From Myxococcota bacterium (GTDB taxonomy: Bacteria; Myxococcota_A; UBA9160; PR03): a DNA stretch of 13,291 nucleotides. The DNA lies in the NCBI GenBank assembly GCA_030066475.1, contig JASJBO010000111.1, forward strand, positions 1 through 13,291, in the 5' to 3' direction. Position 1 is the first letter of the stretch; each line of letters begins with the position of its first letter. Below the pieces are notes generated by a model. The model worked only from the letters and a program-made list of their open reading frames with translations, did no database searches and had not been told where the DNA came from. Shown here piece after piece: positions 1,718 to 13,291 of this stretch. Position numbers and translations under genes: made by a program.

Positions 1718-1733
1718 TGGCACGGCGCTTGCT
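1718..1733 (+). promoter_or_regulatory. Sigma-54 (RpoN) promoter of the flgF-fliW operon
   Basis: TGGCACGGCGCTTGCT matches the -24/-12 consensus TGGCACG-N4-TTGCW exactly. The GG (1719-1720) and GC (1731-1732) have the required 12-base offset. The predicted transcription start is near 1744, giving a leader of about 28 bases before the flgF ATG. This promoter type needs RpoN and an enhancer-binding AAA+ activator such as an FlgR/FleQ-type regulator; neither is encoded in the window. Confidence 0.9.
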
Positions 1734-8132: not shown

Positions 8133-9071
8133 ATGACCCGCATCACCGGCTCGATGACCTACCGCACGGCGCTGCAGAACCTCGCCGTCCGGCGCGAGCA
8201 GCTCGCCCGCACCGAGGAGCAGGCGACCAGCGGTCGGCGCATCAACCGGCCGTCGGACGACCCGGTGGGCGCCGGCCGGGCCGCGCGCCTGCGGCTCGAC
8301 GTCGCGACGAGCGACCAGTTCCTGCGCAACGCGAGCGCCGCGAGCGCGCGGCTGCGCGCCACGGAGCAGGCGGTGAAAGGAGCCCACGAGCTGGTGTCGC
8401 GCGCGCGCGCGCTGGCGGTGCAGGGCGCGACCGACACGCTCGACGCCAGCGCGCGGCGGATCCTCGCCACCGATGTCGAATCCCTGCACGCCGACCTCCT
8501 CGCGCTCGCGAACGCGCGGCACGACGGGGGCTCGCTGTTCGCCGGCATGCAGAACGACGGCCCGGCCTTCAGCGCCAGCGGCGGCTTCGCGGCCGCGCCT
8601 CCCACCGTCACCTACCAGGGCGACTCCGCGGAGCTCGAGGTCGAGGTCGAGCCGGGCAGCCGGATCGCCACGACGCTCGACGGACGACGGGTGTTCCAGG
8701 GCGACGCGGACGGCGACGGCGCCCCGGACGGCGGGCGCGAGGACGCGTTCCGGGTACTCGGCGACCTGTGGCAGGCGCTGGTCGACGACGACCGGGCGGC
8801 GGTCGCCGCCACGCTCGATCGCCTCGACACCGTGGAGCTCCAGATCGAGCTCGAGCAGACGCGGGTGGGTGCCGCGGACCGGCGCGTCCAGAACGCGGCC
8901 GCGAACCTGGGCGACACCGGGGTCGAGCTGCGCCAGCGCCTGTCGGAGGTGGAGGACGCGGACACGATCCGCGTGCTGTCCGAGCTCGCCCTCCACCAGG
9001 CGGCCCTCGAGGCGTCGCTGCGCGCGACGGCGAGCGTGGTGCAGAACTCGCTCGTGAGCTTCCTGAGCTAG
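8133..9071 (+). CDS. flgL: FlgL, hook-filament junction protein 3 (HAP3)
   Basis: A 312-aa flagellin-like junction protein. The N-terminus MTRITGSMTYRTALQNLAVRREQLARTEEQATSGRRINRPSDDPVGAGRA matches the FlgL/flagellin N domain. The middle has NARHDGGSLFAGMQNDGPAF, and the C-terminus has DRRVQNAAANLGDTGVELRQRLSEVEDADTIRVLSELALHQAALEASLRA. A run of GGA repeats (GGGAGGAGGAGGG, just before the ATG) forms a strong ribosome-binding site. Residues 191-199 read DADGDGAPD, resembling a calcium-binding DxDxDG loop, which is unusual for this protein. The gene follows flgK by 16 bases and precedes csrA by three. FlgL rather than FliC is decided by the position after flgK and the divergent C-terminus (VVQNSLVSFLS). 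Confidence 0.94.
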   Translation: MTRITGSMTYRTALQNLAVRREQLARTEEQATSGRRINRPSDDPVGAGRAARLRLDVATSDQFLRNASAASARLRATEQAVKGAHELVSRARALAVQGATDTLDASARRILATDVESLHADLLALANARHDGGSLFAGMQNDGPAFSASGGFAAAPPTVTYQGDSAELEVEVEPGSRIATTLDGRRVFQGDADGDGAPDGGREDAFRVLGDLWQALVDDDRAAVAATLDRLDTVELQIELEQTRVGAADRRVQNAAANLGDTGVELRQRLSEVEDADTIRVLSELALHQAALEASLRATASVVQNSLVSFLS

Positions 9072-9074
9072 CGC

Positions 9075-9302
9075 GTGCTGGTCCTGACGCGCAAGCCGGG
9101 CGAGACCATCCGGATCGGGGACGCGGTCCGGGTCACCGTGCTCTCGGCATCGGCGAGCCACGTTCGCCTCGCGGTCGAGGCGCCCGACGAGGTGTCGGTG
9201 CACCGCGAGGAGGTGTTCGTCCGGATCGAGCAGGCGAACCGGGAGGCGGCCGCCTGCGCTCGCAGCAGCGGCGAGCAGGCGGACGGCGGAGGGGGAGCAT
9301 GA
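9075..9302 (+). CDS. csrA: CsrA, RNA-binding translational regulator with C-terminal extension
   Basis: A 75-aa CsrA/RsmA-family protein that dimerises and binds GGA motifs in mRNA leaders, usually blocking translation. The RNA-binding core is intact: MLVLTRKPGETIRIGD at the N-terminus (with L4) and EAPDEVSVHREEVFVRI, in which R44 is the key RNA-contact arginine. After the core there is a tail of about 20 residues (IEQANREAAACARSSG and onward), longer than the 61-aa enterobacterial protein and similar in length to Bacillus subtilis CsrA. N55 lies at the same position as Asn55 of the B. subtilis protein, part of the FliW contact as I recall. The GTG start three bases after the flgL stop has no Shine-Dalgarno sequence, suggesting low or coupled translation. 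fliW follows with an ATGA overlap. Confidence 0.96.
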   Translation: MLVLTRKPGETIRIGDAVRVTVLSASASHVRLAVEAPDEVSVHREEVFVRIEQANREAAACARSSGEQADGGGGA

Positions 9303-9760
9303 CGGAGCGACTGCAGTGCGACACGACGCGGTTCGGGCGGGTCGAAGCCGACGCCGCCGAGGTGATCGAGTTCCCGGGCCTGCCCGGCTTCCCCGGCGCG
9401 CAGCGCTTCGTGCTCCGGCAGCACGACCGCGGCGCCGTGCTCGCCTGGCTGGTGAGCCTCGACGACCCCGACCTGGCGTTCGTGGTCGTGAATCCGTGGC
9501 ATCTCGTGCCGGACTACGCCCCCGCCGTCGCCGCACGCGAGCTGCGGCTGCTGGACGTCGAGAGCGCGGACGAGCTGGAGGTGGTCGTGATCGCGACCGT
9601 CGCGGACGGGACCGCCACGCTGAACCTCGCGGCTCCGCTGCTGATCCACCCGGGTTCGCGCCGCGGGGTCCAGGTGATCCTGGACGACGACCGCTACTCG
9701 ACGCGGGTGACCGCGCCGATCGCCACCTCCGCTCAGATGGAATCGAACCCGGACACGTAG
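9299..9760 (+). CDS. fliW: FliW, flagellar assembly factor and CsrA antagonist
   Basis: A 153-aa cytoplasmic protein. In characterised systems FliW binds both flagellin and CsrA. When flagellin is exported, free FliW sequesters CsrA and flagellin translation resumes. The family pattern is clear: VIEFPGLPGFPGAQRFVL (residues 22-39), then LAWLVSLDDPDLAFVVVNPWHLVPDYAP. The C-terminal half has ATLNLAAPLLIHPGSRRGVQVILDDDRYSTR, equivalent to the common T-NL-APIVIN...G-Q-I..D..Y..R. GGAGGGGGAG precedes the ATG. It is the last gene of the flgF operon. Its final 28 bases overlap the end of the convergent acetyltransferase gene. Confidence 0.95.
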   Translation: MTERLQCDTTRFGRVEADAAEVIEFPGLPGFPGAQRFVLRQHDRGAVLAWLVSLDDPDLAFVVVNPWHLVPDYAPAVAARELRLLDVESADELEVVVIATVADGTATLNLAAPLLIHPGSRRGVQVILDDDRYSTRVTAPIATSAQMESNPDT

Positions 9761-10854
9761 AGCGGCCAGGGCAGGGCGCGCGCGAGCGCGCGGTACTCGG
9801 CGGCGTCGAGCGCGCGGATCGCCCGCGCCGGGCGCTCCGGGCCGAGCAGCAGCGCGAGCGCCTCCGCGTGGGTCAGTGCCACGCGGCCCTGGGAACCGCG
9901 CAGGGCGTAGTCGTCGCCGGCACGGCAGAGCTCGACGCGCGCGAGCGCCGGCTCGGCGCGCGCCACCGAGCGGAGCAGGCGCGAGGCGTCGAGCAGACGC
10001 ATCCAACCCAGCGGGCGGCGATCGAGCGGCGCGCCGGCGGCGCGCAGCGCGCGCGCGGGCTCGTCCTCCGCGTTCGGGGCCAGCCACAGCAGCTCGCCGG
10101 TCCGCTCCGCGAGTGCGGCGAAGCAGGCGAGCACGCCGTCGGGCTCGCCCGCCCACTCGTGGATCACGCCCCGGAAGTCGTCGCCGCGGCCGGCGGCGGC
10201 ATAGGCGGCCGGCCGCCCCTGCCGGCGCGCGACCCGCAGCGTGCAGGACGGCGCGGCGGCCAGCAGCCGCAGCTCTCCGCGGCGCCGACGGGCGCGGGCG
10301 TCCCGCGCCGCCTGGAGCGTCTCGAGCGCCTCCCAGTCCGCGTCGCGAGCGGGCCCGAGCTCGCACTCCGCAGGCCCTGCCAGCGCGCGCGCGGCCTCGC
10401 GGCACAGGGCCGGCGTGACGACCCCGATCTGCTCCGCGCCAGCCTCGGCGAACCCCAGACGGGCGTACCAGTCCGGCAGGTCGCTCCAGAGCAGCGCGAG
10501 CACGGCGCCCTCGCGGCGCAACGCCTCCACGCACGCCTCCACGCAGGCGCTGGCCAGGCCGCGGCCGCGCCAGCGCGGCTCGGTGTAGACCAGGCCCACG
10601 AGCCCGATCGGAAGCTCGCACCCCGCCGCCCGCACGCGGATCGGCCGGGCGAAGGCGTGCGCGGCGAAGCTCCCGCCGACCCGCGCGATGCGGTGTCCCT
10701 CGACTCCGCCCGCGGTCAGGGCGGTCGGGTACTCGCTCGCGAGCTGGCCCGCGCGTCCGTCGCGCAGCCCGGCGTCGAGCCAGCGCAGCAGCGCGGCGCG
10801 CTCGTCGCTCCGGACGGAAACCACCTCGGGACCGAGGCTTCCCTCGCTGCGCAT
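9733..10854 (-). CDS. Eis-like GNAT-family N-acetyltransferase
   Basis: A 373-aa protein with an N-terminal GNAT acetyltransferase domain. The acetyl-CoA-binding motif A is in GLVGLVYTEPRWRGRGLAS (pattern R-x-x-G-x-G/A), followed by LALLWSDLPDWYARLGF, the usual GNAT ending with a candidate catalytic tyrosine. The remaining 200 or so residues look like a degenerate second GNAT domain. A C-terminal part ends LPWPLYVSGFDSI, the three-part plan of Eis-type enzymes (GNAT, GNAT-like, SCP2-like). Eis enzymes acetylate lysines or amines; the substrate here is unknown. GTG at 10869 is possible, but the sigma-54 promoter predicts transcription from about 10871, leaving no leader, so I prefer the ATG at 10854. 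The sigma-54 promoter and flagellar setting suggest a role in motility, for example modifying a flagellar protein; this is inference. Confidence 0.85.
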   Translation of the reverse strand: MRSEGSLGPEVVSVRSDERAALLRWLDAGLRDGRAGQLASEYPTALTAGGVEGHRIARVGGSFAAHAFARPIRVRAAGCELPIGLVGLVYTEPRWRGRGLASACVEACVEALRREGAVLALLWSDLPDWYARLGFAEAGAEQIGVVTPALCREAARALAGPAECELGPARDADWEALETLQAARDARARRRRGELRLLAAAPSCTLRVARRQGRPAAYAAAGRGDDFRGVIHEWAGEPDGVLACFAALAERTGELLWLAPNAEDEPARALRAAGAPLDRRPLGWMRLLDASRLLRSVARAEPALARVELCRAGDDYALRGSQGRVALTHAEALALLLGPERPARAIRALDAAEYRALARALPWPLYVSGFDSI

Positions 10855-10881
10855 CGCGACCTGCGTCACGTGCGGGCGTGG

Positions 10882-10897
10882 TGCAAGGCGGGTGCCA
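10882..10897 (-). promoter_or_regulatory. Sigma-54 promoter of the acetyltransferase gene
   Basis: Read on the minus strand, bases 10897 to 10882 give TGGCACCCGCCTTGCA, matching TGGCAC-N5-TTGCA. The GG (10896-10895) and GC (10884-10883) are correctly spaced. The predicted start of transcription is near 10871, 17 bases before the ATG at 10854. It points away from the flagellin promoter, with which it shares the intergenic region. Confidence 0.82.
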
Positions 10898-10918
10898 CCC
10901 GGCTGGCCCGGAAGCCGC

Positions 10919-10969
10919 CGTTCCGCGGCACCCGGGTTTCAGGATGAACCCGCAATTGCAGGCGGAACG
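10919..10969. repeat. Nested inverted repeat between divergent sigma-54 promoters
   Basis: The outer arms CGTTCCGC (10919-10926) and GCGGAACG (10962-10969) are perfect complements. The inner arms CGGGTT (10933-10938) and AACCCG (10947-10952) share almost the same centre, near 10943. The centre lies about 72 bases from the predicted acetyltransferase transcription start and 187 from that of fliC. It could be an activator site; no protein can be assigned. Confidence 0.35.
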
Positions 10970-10980
10970 CGTTCTCGTGC

Positions 10981-11012
10981 GCGTCGTGGCGCGGCCTGAA
11001 GCCGCACGACGC
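10981..11012. promoter_or_regulatory. 32-bp dyad midway between divergent sigma-54 promoters (candidate enhancer)
   Basis: GCGTCGT (10981-10987), a three-base GGC interruption and GCGGC are mirrored by GCCGC and ACGACGC (11001-11012) around CTGAA. The centre, about 10997, is almost equidistant from the two promoters and lies some 125-135 bases upstream of each predicted start. This is the usual distance for a site bound by a sigma-54 activator and would let one site serve both genes. The role is inferred from geometry only. Confidence 0.4.
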
Positions 11013-11103
11013 AGCATCTCCTGCGCAGCTCCGCTTCGAGCGCGCCGGAATCCAGAGCGCTCGCCGGGCGCGTCGCCGCACCCGCAGCCGCGTGCTCGGT
11101 CCC

Positions 11104-11119
11104 TGGCATCCGGCTTGCA
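11104..11119 (+). promoter_or_regulatory. Sigma-54 promoter of flagellin fliC
   Basis: TGGCATCCGGCTTGCA fits the -24/-12 consensus TGGCAC-N5-TTGCA with one deviation (T for C). The GG at 11105-11106 and GC at 11117-11118 have the correct offset. The predicted start is near 11130, leaving a leader of about 150 bases. Flagellin is more often sigma-28 dependent, but no sigma-28-like TAAA...GCCGATAA element is seen here. Sigma-54 flagellins are known, for example in Caulobacter. Confidence 0.82.
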
Positions 11120-11129
11120 CTAGCTCGAT

Positions 11130-11279
11130 GCGTCCCGAAGCCGGAGCGACGGGGACCCGACTCGCCCGAGTCGGGGAGCCGGCTCCGACGTGAGCGTGTC
11201 CGATCGGGGGATCGGCGCGCCTGGACGAATCCCGCCACGGACGGGCGGGGACCAGTGCGATCAAGGAGGATTCGCCAGC
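11130..11279 (+). promoter_or_regulatory. Structured fliC 5' leader with candidate CsrA-binding hairpins
   Basis: The predicted untranslated leader holds several inverted repeats in a row. CCCGACTC and GAGTCGGG form an 8-bp stem (11156-11175). GGAGCCGGCTCC is a palindrome (11175-11186). CCGATC and GATCGG form a stem (11200-11215). CCCGCC and GGCGGG form a stem (11231-11249) with loop ACGGACG. The ribosome-binding site AAGGAGGA (11263-11270) lies in the loop between GCGA (11257-11260) and TCGC (11272-11275). The last two put ANGGA, the CsrA core motif, in loops, the second on the Shine-Dalgarno itself. csrA and fliW upstream make CsrA control of flagellin translation likely. Confidence 0.6.
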
Positions 11280-12104
11280 ATGGGTCTCAGAGTCAATACG
11301 AACCCCGCGTCGCTCAACGCGCAGCGGAACCTGCAGAACACGACGAACCGGCTGAACCGGTCGCTCGAGCGGCTGTCTTCGGGCCTGCGCATCACGCGCG
11401 CGGCGGACGACGCAGCCGGCCTCGCGATCTCCGAGCGCTTCCGGGCCGAGATCCGGAGCCTCGGTCAGGCGCAGCGGAACGCCAACGACGGCGTGTCGCT
11501 GCTCCAGGTCGCCGAGGGCGCGCTCAACGAGACGAGCGGGATCCTCGTTCGTCTCCGCGAGCTGTCGGTCCAGTCGATGAACGGGACGCTCGGCACCGCC
11601 GAGCGGGCCGCCCTGGACGACGAGTTCCAGGCGCTCCTGTCGGAGATCGACCGCATCGCGGCCGTGACCCAGTTCAACGGGACCCAGGTGCTGAACAGCA
11701 CCGGGGTGTCGGTGACGTTCCAGGTCGGCATCGACAACACGTCCAACGACAGCATCACGGTGTCGGGCGTGGACGCGACCACCTCGGGCATCGGCGTGTC
11801 GGGTCTCGACATCGCGAGCGCCGGCGCGGCCTCGGCCGCCCTGTCGGCCGTCGACGCGGCCGTGGGCGACATCGCCTCGCTGCGCGCCCAGTTCGGCGCG
11901 GCCCAGAACCGCCTCGAGTCGGCGATCCGGTCGCTGGGGGTCTCGATCGAGAACACCTCGGCCGCCGAGTCGCGGATCCGCGACGTGGACGTGGCGTCGG
12001 AGACGGCGGAGCTGACCCGGAACCAGGTGCTCCAGCAGGCCGGTGTGTCGGTGCTCGCCCAGGCGAACTTCTCGACGCAGGTCGCCCTGTCGCTGCTCGG
12101 CTAG
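11280..12104 (+). CDS. fliC: FliC, flagellin (short form)
   Basis: A 274-aa flagellin, the filament subunit, exported by the flagellar type III system. The conserved N-terminal D0/D1 begins MGLRVNTNPASLNAQRNL and runs through SLERLSSGLRITRAADDAAGLAISERFRAEIRSL and NANDGVSLLQVAEGAL. RLRELSVQ (91-98) matches the region recognised by TLR5 in Salmonella-type flagellins. The C-terminal D1/D0 has SLGVSIENTSAAESRIRDVDVASETAELTRNQVLQQAGVSVLAQANFSTQVALSLLG. Only a short linker with beta-rich sequence (around VTFQVGIDNTSNDSITVSG) replaces the surface D2/D3 domains. AAGGAGGA nine bases before the ATG is a strong ribosome-binding site. Own sigma-54 promoter upstream; two hairpins downstream. A single flagellin gene is seen here. 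Confidence 0.97.
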   Translation: MGLRVNTNPASLNAQRNLQNTTNRLNRSLERLSSGLRITRAADDAAGLAISERFRAEIRSLGQAQRNANDGVSLLQVAEGALNETSGILVRLRELSVQSMNGTLGTAERAALDDEFQALLSEIDRIAAVTQFNGTQVLNSTGVSVTFQVGIDNTSNDSITVSGVDATTSGIGVSGLDIASAGAASAALSAVDAAVGDIASLRAQFGAAQNRLESAIRSLGVSIENTSAAESRIRDVDVASETAELTRNQVLQQAGVSVLAQANFSTQVALSLLG

Positions 12105-12116
12105 CGAGGGACACCG

Positions 12117-12148
12117 ACGTCGGGCCGGAGCCGAATCCGGCCTGACGT
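12117..12148 (+). terminator. First hairpin after fliC
   Basis: ACGTCGGGCCGGA (12117-12129) pairs with TCCGGCCTGACGT (12136-12148) around the loop GCCGAA, giving 13 pairs with one G-T wobble. It starts 12 bases after the fliC stop. There is no T-tract, so it may stabilise the abundant flagellin mRNA 3' end rather than terminate transcription. Confidence 0.5.
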
Positions 12149-12149
12149 G

Positions 12150-12186
12150 GCCGGCCCGCCGCGCGGAGCCCGCGCGGCGGGCCGGC
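12150..12186 (+). terminator. Second, very stable hairpin after fliC
   Basis: A perfect 17-bp, all G-C stem spans 12150-12166 and 12170-12186 with the loop AGC. It lies one base after the first hairpin and about 28 bases before fliD. It is not followed by a T-run (AATCACCCC follows). It probably ends or attenuates the flagellin transcript, so fliD would be made from read-through at a lower level, since no other promoter is visible before fliD. Confidence 0.6.
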
Positions 12187-12214
12187 AATCACCCCCCCGG
12201 CAAGGGAGTTCGAG

Positions 12215-13291
12215 TTGACGGAGGTCGGATCGTCGCGGCTCACGTTCGGCGGGCTCGCGACCGGGGTCGACACGGCGGCGATCGTCGACGCGCTGATCGA
12301 CGTGCAGCGCCAGCCCCTCCTGCGCCTCCAGGACGATCGCCGGGGGATCGTCCGGCAGCAGGACCTGCTGCGGCAGCTCAACACCCTCGTCCTCGACCTG
12401 CGCGAGGCCGCGCGCGCCATCGACAACCAGAGCGCCTTCCTCACCGGCCCGTCGCTGAACGAGGAGCTCCTCGCGCTGACCGCCTCCTCCTCGGACGAGG
12501 GCGTGCTGGTCGCCAGCGCGGACGACGGCGCGGCGCTGTCCGGCAGCTTCGACGTCACCGTCGGCCAGGTGGCGACCGGCAGCCGCCGCATCAGCGCGGC
12601 CTATGCCTCCGCCGCGGACGTGGTCGGGCAGGCGGGCGACACGGTCTCGATCGCCTACGGGGGCGCCGCGAGCATCGACTTCACGCTCACCGCGGGCACC
12701 ACCCTGGAGCAGGTCCGCGACGCGATCAACCTCGACGCGAACAACGACGGCAGCGTCCGCGCGGACCTCCTGGACGACGGCCAGGGCGGCGTGCGGCTGA
12801 TCCTGTCGGGCACGAAGACCGGGAGCGCGAACGACGTCAGCGTCACCACCACGGTCCTCGGTCCCGGCGGCGTGCCCTTCCTCGACGCGGACCTGAGCGA
12901 GGACGCCCAGGACGCCCAGCTCACGGTCTTCGGCGTCGCCATCACCCGGCCCGGCAACGAGATCGCGGACGCGATCCCCGGGCTGACCCTCCAGCTCAAG
13001 GGCGACGGGGACGCCACGGTCGATCTCTCGCGCGACGACGAGGCGATCGCGTCGCGCCTCCAGACCTTCGTGGACGCCTACAACGCGATCCTCGACTTCT
13101 CGGACCGGCAGACGCAGGTCGACGCCGACACGCAGCGCGCCGGGCCGCTCTCCGGCGACTTCACCATGCGGACCTCGGTGCAGACGATCCAGACGATCGC
13201 GACGGACCTGTACGCGTTCACCGACAATCCGTTCCAGTCGCTCTCCCAGATCGGCGTCGGCTTCGACGCCAATGGCCGCCTCTCGCTGGAT
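12215..13291 (+). CDS. fliD: FliD, filament cap protein (3'-truncated by window edge)
   Basis: The first 359 codons of FliD (HAP2), the cap under which flagellin polymerises at the filament tip. The frame is open to the last base of the window. The N-terminal domain has SRLTFGGLATGVDTAAIVDALIDVQRQPLLRLQDDRRGIVRQQDLLRQLNTLVLDLREAAR, typical of FliD_N. LSGSFDVTVGQVATGSRRIS, LTAGTTLEQVRDAIN and LILSGTKTGSANDV follow, and then the FliD_C opening with IPGLTLQL, RLQTFVDAYNAIL and LSQIGVGFDANGRLSLD. The start is a TTG at 12215, six bases after CAAGGGAG (12201-12208); no ATG or GTG is better placed. It follows the two fliC hairpins by 28 bases and has no promoter of its own in that gap. fliS would be expected next. 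Confidence 0.94.
   Translation, partial: MTEVGSSRLTFGGLATGVDTAAIVDALIDVQRQPLLRLQDDRRGIVRQQDLLRQLNTLVLDLREAARAIDNQSAFLTGPSLNEELLALTASSSDEGVLVASADDGAALSGSFDVTVGQVATGSRRISAAYASAADVVGQAGDTVSIAYGGAASIDFTLTAGTTLEQVRDAINLDANNDGSVRADLLDDGQGGVRLILSGTKTGSANDVSVTTTVLGPGGVPFLDADLSEDAQDAQLTVFGVAITRPGNEIADAIPGLTLQLKGDGDATVDLSRDDEAIASRLQTFVDAYNAILDFSDRQTQVDADTQRAGPLSGDFTMRTSVQTIQTIATDLYAFTDNPFQSLSQIGVGFDANGRLSLD

What the first reader, a model, noticed from the sequence alone, without database searches (positions are those of the whole stretch)
11130..11279. Flagellin leader looks like a two-site CsrA switch beside its own csrA-fliW pair
The predicted 150-nt leader has a 6-bp hairpin (CCCGCC/GGCGGG) that exposes ACGGA in its loop. 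About 25 bases later the Shine-Dalgarno AAGGAGGA sits in the loop of a GCGA/TCGC stem. Both loops carry the CsrA core ANGGA. This parallels the hag leader of Bacillus subtilis, where CsrA binds one upstream hairpin and one site over the ribosome-binding site. Three more inverted repeats upstream (from 11156) are not explained by CsrA and might protect or delay translation of the message.
Basis: partly seen in the sequence, partly recalled or inferred. Interest (0 to 1): 0.72.

Follow-up and report, generated by a model that had tools for sequence, protein, structure and literature searches.

The report
Two-site CsrA switch before flagellin
The start of this bacterium's flagellin message carries a conserved hairpin and a ribosome-binding site that both look like docking points for the repressor CsrA, so the cell probably limits flagellin production the way Bacillus and Campylobacter do.

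Summary
A sigma54-type promoter (11104-11119) predicts a start at 11130. The hairpin 11230-11250 shows ACGGA in its loop, 26 nt before the AAGGA of the Shine-Dalgarno site. In the window alone this is only moderately improbable (0.6-4% of shuffles). Of 35 leaders of flagellins over 67% identical, 28 keep an ANGGA-loop hairpin (15 decoy motifs: 0-5), on stems that change with pairing kept; 27 of the 28 also have ANGGA at the ribosome-binding site. Of 23 held genomes, 22 have one csrA and one fliW; the one without either has no hairpin. A Desulfuromonadales-type order shows the same plan in 33 of 34 leaders read. Two details change: the GCGA/TCGC stem is not conserved (4 of 35), and the upstream repeats are not conserved individually, though the 5' part of these leaders is over-structured in general (mean z -1.68 against -0.20 in random segments), unexplained. 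Many more distant fliW-bearing leaders lack the hairpin, and several paralogues here lost it. A new member of a known kind (B. subtilis hag, C. jejuni flaA).

The parts
11104..11119 (+). sigma54-type -24/-12 promoter TGGCAT-CCGGC-TTGCA, predicted transcription start 11130
   Evidence: Sequence; score 10 of 11 (consensus recalled); 33 of 35 close leaders score >=9 of 11 against 1.9% of mononucleotide shuffles
11130..11279 (+). predicted 150-nt flagellin mRNA leader
   Evidence: From the promoter position; start site not mapped
11142..11220 (+). structured 5' part of the leader (8-bp hairpin 11156-11175 inside an outer helix 11142-11187; hairpin 11194-11220)
   Evidence: Folds; the 5' part of 33 leaders has mean z -1.68 against -0.20 for 132 random segments; not conserved in sequence or number
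11230..11250 (+). upstream CsrA-site hairpin (BS1-like), loop ACGGACG
   Evidence: 28 of 35 close leaders at E<=-4; stem covariation 0.408 against 0.221 shuffled, 0 of 500 shuffles as high
11237..11241 (+). ACGGA core of the upstream site
   Evidence: A, GG and A are the same in the 30 sequences of A1, which were chosen by this motif
11262..11270 (+). second CsrA-type site CAAGGAGGA overlapping the Shine-Dalgarno
   Evidence: ANGGA in 31 of 35, CANGGA in 28 of 35 close leaders; spacing to the upstream motif 26 nt here, 21-35 nt over the 27 leaders with both
11257..11275 (+). GCGA/TCGC stem around the Shine-Dalgarno (weak, not conserved)
   Evidence: -2.8 kcal/mol; a Shine-Dalgarno hairpin in only 4 of 35
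11280..12104 (+). flagellin
   Evidence: PF00669 1.7e-42, PF00700 1.5e-25
9075..9302 (+). csrA, 75 aa, R44, I51, N55, C-terminal extension
   Evidence: PF02599 4.3e-22; PDB 5dmb chain D 2.7e-12; residues
9299..9760 (+). fliW, overlapping the csrA stop by 4 nt (ATGA)
   Evidence: PDB 5dmb FliW 3e-13; translation

Best explanation
The leader is a two-site CsrA translational switch for flagellin. Shown here: a hairpin with an ANGGA loop, a second ANGGA overlapping the Shine-Dalgarno about 25 nt downstream, stem covariation around a kept loop motif, and co-occurrence with csrA and fliW. Inferred from the B. subtilis and C. jejuni systems: one CsrA dimer grips the hairpin loop with one pocket and reaches the Shine-Dalgarno site with the other, blocking the ribosome; FliW bound at CsrA N55 releases it; unexported flagellin binds FliW and so restores repression until export resumes. 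Transcription is from a sigma54-type promoter, by sequence only. The 5' hairpins upstream probably serve message stability and not CsrA binding; this is a guess.
For: ANGGA-loop hairpin at -30 to -52 in 28 of 35 close leaders, decoys 0-5 of 35, shuffles 2.1% at the stricter <=-6 cut. Stem covariation 0.408 against 0.221, 0 of 500 shuffles as high; minimum pair-type changes on the flagellin tree add up to 64 over eight stem positions. Shine-Dalgarno ANGGA 31 of 35, CANGGA 28 of 35, against ANGGA in 15 of 104 long reading frames of the same loci, flagellins included. 22 of 23 held genomes of these relatives (two of them more distant neighbours) have one csrA and one fliW; the 27 close hairpin-bearing leaders with a held genome all lie in fliW-bearing ones, and the one genome without fliW and csrA (G064) has a flagellin leader without hairpin (L113). 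N55 and R44 in 14 of 14 CsrA read. Same plan in 33 of 34 leaders of a Desulfuromonadales order, Shine-Dalgarno ANGGA 34 of 34. In 88 distant leaders (one label corrected) Shine-Dalgarno ANGGA is in 42 of 62 with fliW and 5 of 26 without; hairpin <=-2 in 18 of 62 against 1 of 26.
Against: No binding or expression data. 7 of 35 close leaders lack the hairpin at E<=-4; 6 of them are in fliW-bearing genomes (G005 three, G044, G065, G008). 53 of 62 distant fliW-bearing leaders lack it at <=-4, and so do 7 of 8 leaders of more distant flagellins in the relatives' own genomes, none of which has ANGGA at the Shine-Dalgarno. Two Desulfuromonadales genomes without a fliW match (G196, G207; small drafts) still have hairpins (L192, L191). 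In the window an alternative stem 11221-11232 / 11268-11278 competes with the hairpin. The hairpin stem is hardly populated in the predicted ensemble of L010, L012 and L015. One measure, the number of pairs with a change on both sides (8), is reached by 95 of 500 shuffles, and the -1 slide is nearly as good (0.394), presumably because 6-nt loops fall in that register. The hairpins were picked by energy, so they pair by construction. Sequences are related, so counts are not independent.
Confidence: 0.87

Rival explanations
1. Only the Shine-Dalgarno site is used by CsrA; the upstream hairpin is an insulating or stabilising structure and its loop motif is incidental.
For: Many distant fliW-bearing leaders have a Shine-Dalgarno ANGGA without a hairpin, and two close paralogues (L099, L008) have a hairpin on the Shine-Dalgarno itself and no ANGGA-loop hairpin upstream.
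Against: Hairpins in this place have ANGGA in the loop in 28 of 35 while 15 decoy motifs are rare, and the stem changes around it. A purely structural hairpin would not need ANGGA.
Confidence: 0.05
2. The leader is read by another RNA-binding protein or an antisense RNA, not CsrA.
For: No binding data; the window's own genome is not held, so other regulators were not looked for.
Against: ANGGA in a hairpin loop and over the ribosome-binding site is the CsrA-bound arrangement reported for flaA (PMC4894983, passages), and the trait goes with fliW.
Confidence: 0.04
3. A structural switch: the stem 11221-11232 / 11268-11278 covers part of the Shine-Dalgarno and competes with the upstream hairpin, with CsrA tipping the balance.
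For: Minimum-energy fold of the leader cut at the start codon; duplex energy -15.2 in the window, third strongest of the 28 leaders compared.
Against: Over 28 leaders own 5'/3' pairs are hardly better than swapped ones (mean -10.40 against -9.70, sd 3.30), so it is not conserved.
Confidence: 0.04

Closest known systems
Campylobacter jejuni flaA leader (SL1/SL2), CsrA-FliW
   Same: Two ANGGA motifs, the first in a hairpin loop, the second over the ribosome-binding site; compensatory stem changes among species; FliW as antagonist (PMC4894983, passages).
   Different: 45-nt 5'UTR with both sites in stem-loops and a reported role as CsrA titrator; here the predicted leader is 150 nt with extra 5' structure and the second hairpin is not conserved.
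Bacillus subtilis hag leader (BS1, BS2), CsrA-FliW
   Same: Two sites, the second overlapping the Shine-Dalgarno; BS1 A51-A55 and BS2 C75-G82 (PMC8523840, passage), a spacing of about 24 nt against 26 here.
   Different: Sigma-D promoter there (recalled) and fliW before csrA (PMC6529632, passages); here a sigma54-type promoter and csrA before fliW with a 4-nt overlap.
E. coli glgC leader
   Same: A hairpin site upstream and a Shine-Dalgarno site bridged by one dimer (PMC7652899, passage).
   Different: Not a flagellin gene; E. coli has no FliW match in the control, and its CsrA is held by CsrB/C RNAs (same paper).

Membership tests
CsrA-controlled two-site flagellin leader (hag/flaA type) | ANGGA in a hairpin loop upstream of the Shine-Dalgarno | tested here: met
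   Window E -12.1; 28 of 35 close leaders at <=-4
CsrA-controlled two-site flagellin leader (hag/flaA type) | Second GGA site overlapping the Shine-Dalgarno at a spacing a dimer can bridge | tested here: met
   26 nt in the window, 21-35 nt over 27 leaders; 10-63 nt reported bridgeable (PMC7652899, passage)
CsrA-controlled two-site flagellin leader (hag/flaA type) | Site hairpin supported by covariation | tested here: met
   Covariation 0.408 against 0.221, 0 of 500 as high; pairs with a change on both sides 8 against 6.6, 95 of 500 as high
CsrA-controlled two-site flagellin leader (hag/flaA type) | CsrA binds the leader and represses translation | not testable with these tools
   Needs RNA-protein binding and a reporter
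FliW-regulated CsrA | Asparagine at position 55, V or I at 51, and a C-terminal extension | tested here: met
   N55 in 14 of 14 read; I51 and 75 aa in the window; position 51 is L in 2 relatives; criteria from PMC7829508 (passages)
FliW-regulated CsrA | fliW in the same genome | tested here: met
   Adjacent in the window; 22 of 23 relatives' genomes
sigma54-dependent promoter | -24 GG / -12 GC element at the right spacing | tested here: met
   10 of 11 matches in the window; >=9 in 33 of 35
sigma54-dependent promoter | Transcription start mapped and dependent on RpoN | not testable with these tools
   No RNA data

The most novel reading that the evidence does not exclude
The two-site flagellin leader is an ancient RNA element, spread over several phyla, that marks FliW-controlled flagellins, with the loop kept and the stem free to turn over. 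In this lineage it is joined to a second, separate structured 5' module, and it has been lost from individual flagellin paralogues, so that one genome holds CsrA-governed and CsrA-free flagellins.
Probability: 0.4. Interest if true: 0.55.

Novelty: new member of a known kind. Interest (0 to 1): 0.4.

Why it matters
It extends the hag/flaA type of flagellin control to an uncultured order whose assemblies are labelled Myxococcota, Proteobacteria or Deltaproteobacteria, with sigma54-type flagellin promoters, and to a Desulfuromonadales order. Two Geobacter papers (2025, 2026) say that direct CsrA binding to proposed targets still awaits a test (passages). The flagellin leader is a concrete target, and the paralogues without the hairpin are natural controls.

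Tried and rejected
Whole-leader folding as evidence: z about -1, uninformative. Sigma70 promoter and intrinsic terminator scan of 9000-13291: nothing. Rfam: no family reached its gathering score. The GCGA/TCGC stem as part of the switch: rejected, 4 of 35. A conserved Shine-Dalgarno-sequestering stem: rejected. Other CsrA targets: model R1 gave 29 matches at E<=1e-5 in 23 genomes; 27 are flagellin leaders, all 27 in the model's own training set, so they prove nothing new, and 2 lie elsewhere: L185 inside a dnaB-like reading frame and L186 before a small hydrophobic protein. Only 150 candidates a genome were scored and two training members (L010, L013) did not reach that level, so other targets are not excluded. 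The window's second match 1711-1774 (11.2 bits; not found again on a short stretch) covers a sigma54-type box before flgF, not a hairpin site. In one search I gave fliW in a wrong frame (9286 instead of 9299), so that Pfam line says nothing about fliW; its identity rests.

Rows dropped before counts: of 133 unique leaders searches drew on 131 (L045 and L055 failed length limits). Matches starting after flagellin residue 6 were left out. One search used 88 of the 96 distant leaders (loci up to L080); the other 8 are. In one search L058 was labelled fliW-bearing, but its assembly is that of L049, without a match; counts are corrected by hand to 62 and 26. In one search CsrA of L126 was not read. 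In some searches two leaders with predicted starts at -50 and -52 were too short, leaving 33, which include L111's second copy and L112, whose promoter scores are poor (6 and 8). Alignment A1 holds the 28 close and 2 more distant hairpin-bearing leaders; hairpin-less ones were left out. In one search, 34 leaders came from 27 of the 30 loci. Of the 5 hits of the ANGAA decoy, 3 are the ANGGA hairpins themselves, L140 and L156 are others.

Novelty searches: (listings). Passages only were read in PMC4894983, PMC8523840, PMC7652899, PMC13407953, PMC6529632, PMC7829508 and PMC11934962. In those searches of open-licence papers I saw no report of this leader in Myxococcota-type bacteria.

Full report
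What is there. The window is a flagellar cluster: flhF, flhG, flgF, flgG, flgA, flgH, flgI, flgJ, flgN, flgK, flgL, csrA, fliW, a GNAT gene on the other strand, flagellin and fliD. csrA, flagellin, fliD, the flagellin-like flgL and the GNAT gene were checked with Pfam, FliW and CsrA by solved structures such as 5dmb; the other names are by eye from the translations. csrA (9075-9302) and fliW (9299-9760) overlap by 4 nt. All elements in the finding are present at the stated coordinates. No whole genome is held for the window.

Promoter. TGGCAT-N5-TTGCA at 11104-11119 matches the sigma54 -24/-12 consensus (recalled) at 10 of 11 positions and puts the start at 11130. Of 35 leaders of flagellins more than 67% identical to the window's (the window included), 33 have a box with at least 9 of 11, against 1.9% of mononucleotide shuffles. 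Their predicted starts lie 50-196 nt before the start codon. L108 and L113, without hairpin, have starts at -52 and -50.

The upstream hairpin. In the window the ACGGA loop sits on a 7-pair stem (E -12.1). On its own this is moderately unusual: 0.6% of 2000 shuffles reach -12, 4.2% reach -6. In relatives an ANGGA-loop hairpin is found in 28 of 35 at <=-4 and 27 of 35 at <=-6, the motif starting at -30 to -52; 15 other ANXYA motifs give 0 to 5 of 35, 3 of those 5 being the same hairpins. Shuffles of all 35 give 2.1% of 3500 at <=-6; of 104 long reading frames of the loci (real and spurious mixed) 11 have such a hairpin, 8 of them flagellins. In 30 aligned hairpin-bearing leaders all eight stem pairs show changes on both sides: 71.0% of cells paired against 58.5% shuffled, covariation 0.408 against 0.221, both 0 of 500 as high; the plain number of such pairs is reached by 95 of 500 shuffles, and the -1 slide scores 0.394. 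Minimum pair-type changes on the flagellin tree add up to 64 over eight positions, on hairpins selected by energy.

The Shine-Dalgarno site. ANGGA overlaps the ribosome-binding region in 31 of 35 leaders and CANGGA in 28 of 35; with the hairpin 27 of 28, without it 4 of 7. The distance between the two motif starts is 21-29 nt in 26 of 27 and 35 in one; 26 in the window. The stem GCGA/TCGC around it is weak (-2.8), and a hairpin there occurs in 4 of 35, two of them (L099, L008) in paralogues without the upstream hairpin. Median predicted openness is 0.94 for the upstream motif and 0.51 for the Shine-Dalgarno site.

Link to CsrA and FliW. Of 23 held genomes (those of the close relatives and two more distant neighbours), 22 have one fliW and one csrA match each. 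The exception, G064, lacks both; its flagellin leader L113 has no hairpin and its flagellin match has an in-frame stop. In 17 of the 23, csrA, fliW and a flagellin lie on one contig (two of these flagellin matches are partial). CsrA carries R44 and N55 in 14 of 14 proteins read; N55 is needed for FliW binding in C. jejuni and B. subtilis (PMC7829508, passages). Among 88 distant flagellin leaders, after one label correction, 62 lie in genomes with a fliW match and 26 in genomes without: Shine-Dalgarno ANGGA 42 and 5, hairpin <=-4 9 and 1, <=-2 18 and 1. So 53 of 62 distant fliW-bearing leaders lack a strong hairpin: the upstream site is not universal. Eight more leaders of distant flagellins in the relatives' own genomes have 1 hairpin and no Shine-Dalgarno ANGGA. 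These are draft assemblies, and absence of fliW may be a gap.

A second order. Of 78 genomes of the order of a Desulfuromonadales-labelled assembly, 45 have matches to its flagellin, weak ones included. Of 34 leaders read from 27 of the 30 loci returned, 33 have an ANGGA-loop hairpin at <=-4 with the motif at -34 to -42, and 34 have ANGGA at the Shine-Dalgarno; nine decoy motifs gave 0-4. No sigma54 box of the pattern used was found in these 34 and a sigma28-like pattern (recalled) in 5, so the plan is not tied to one promoter type. fliW is found in 25 of 27 of these genomes; the two without (G196, G207) nevertheless have hairpins on L192 and on one of two L191 leaders. L051, an Actinomycetota-labelled assembly with fliW, also has both sites.

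The 5' part of the leader. The three repeats are not conserved as such, but between predicted start and hairpin (or -50) 33 leaders have mean z -1.68 with 17 below -1.65, against -0.20 and 18 of 132 for random segments of the loci and -0.52 and 2 of 23 for segments upstream of the promoter (Mann-Whitney 1.4e-7 and 1.4e-3; relatedness not corrected; with other shuffles gave -1.57 and 16). A message-stabilising 5' structure is my best guess; nothing here tests it.

Paralogues. Hairpin-less flagellins occur beside hairpin-bearing ones in G005 (1 of 4 with), G044, G065 and G008; on a tree of 38 flagellins (the 35 and three more distant) presence needs 5 changes, 4 forced by well-supported branches.

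Comparison with known systems. The C. jejuni flaA leader has two ANGGA stem-loops, the second over the ribosome-binding site, with compensatory changes among Campylobacter species (PMC4894983, passages). B. subtilis hag has BS1 A51-A55 and BS2 C75-G82 (PMC8523840, passage). One dimer can bridge sites 10-63 nt apart (PMC7652899, passage). The window matches this plan. Mechanistic steps beyond sequence (binding, bridging, FliW release, feedback by flagellin) are inferred.

Verdict. A real, conserved, two-site CsrA-type flagellin leader; a new member of a known kind, with an unexplained structured 5' part and patchy loss among paralogues as the less ordinary points.

Noticed in passing
window 1718-1733: A sigma54-type box TGGCACGGCGCTTGCT lies before flgF, so the run flgF to flgL-csrA-fliW may share sigma54 with flagellin.
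   Followed up: partly
G005 (L099, L124, L008), G044 (L140), G065 (L111, second copy), G008 (L108): Flagellin paralogues without the upstream ANGGA hairpin in genomes that keep it on another copy; L099 and L008 carry a hairpin on the Shine-Dalgarno instead, and L140 has a hairpin with a GGA but not ANGGA loop.
   Followed up: partly
G064 (L113): The one relative without csrA and fliW matches; its flagellin match has an in-frame TAG and no leader hairpin, as if the control had decayed together with flagellin, or the draft is incomplete.
   Followed up: partly
window 11221-11232 with 11268-11278: An alternative stem would cover the end of the Shine-Dalgarno and compete with the hairpin; not conserved.
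   Followed up: yes
window 9299-9302: csrA and fliW overlap by ATGA, suggesting translational coupling, in the reverse gene order from B. subtilis.
   Followed up: no
L186 1501-1552 (minus strand): A leader-model match (29 bits) just before a small hydrophobic protein reading MLSWSITFLILALIAG, a possible second CsrA target in one genome.
   Followed up: no
L042, L043, L046, L065, L066, L077: Bdellovibrio-type flagellin leaders with ANGGA at the Shine-Dalgarno and another ANGGA some 45-60 nt before the start, without a strong hairpin.
   Followed up: no
L144, L146, L147, L149, L150, L151, L152, L155: More distant flagellins in the relatives' genomes; none has ANGGA at the Shine-Dalgarno and one of eight has a hairpin, so they may lie outside CsrA control.
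   Followed up: partly
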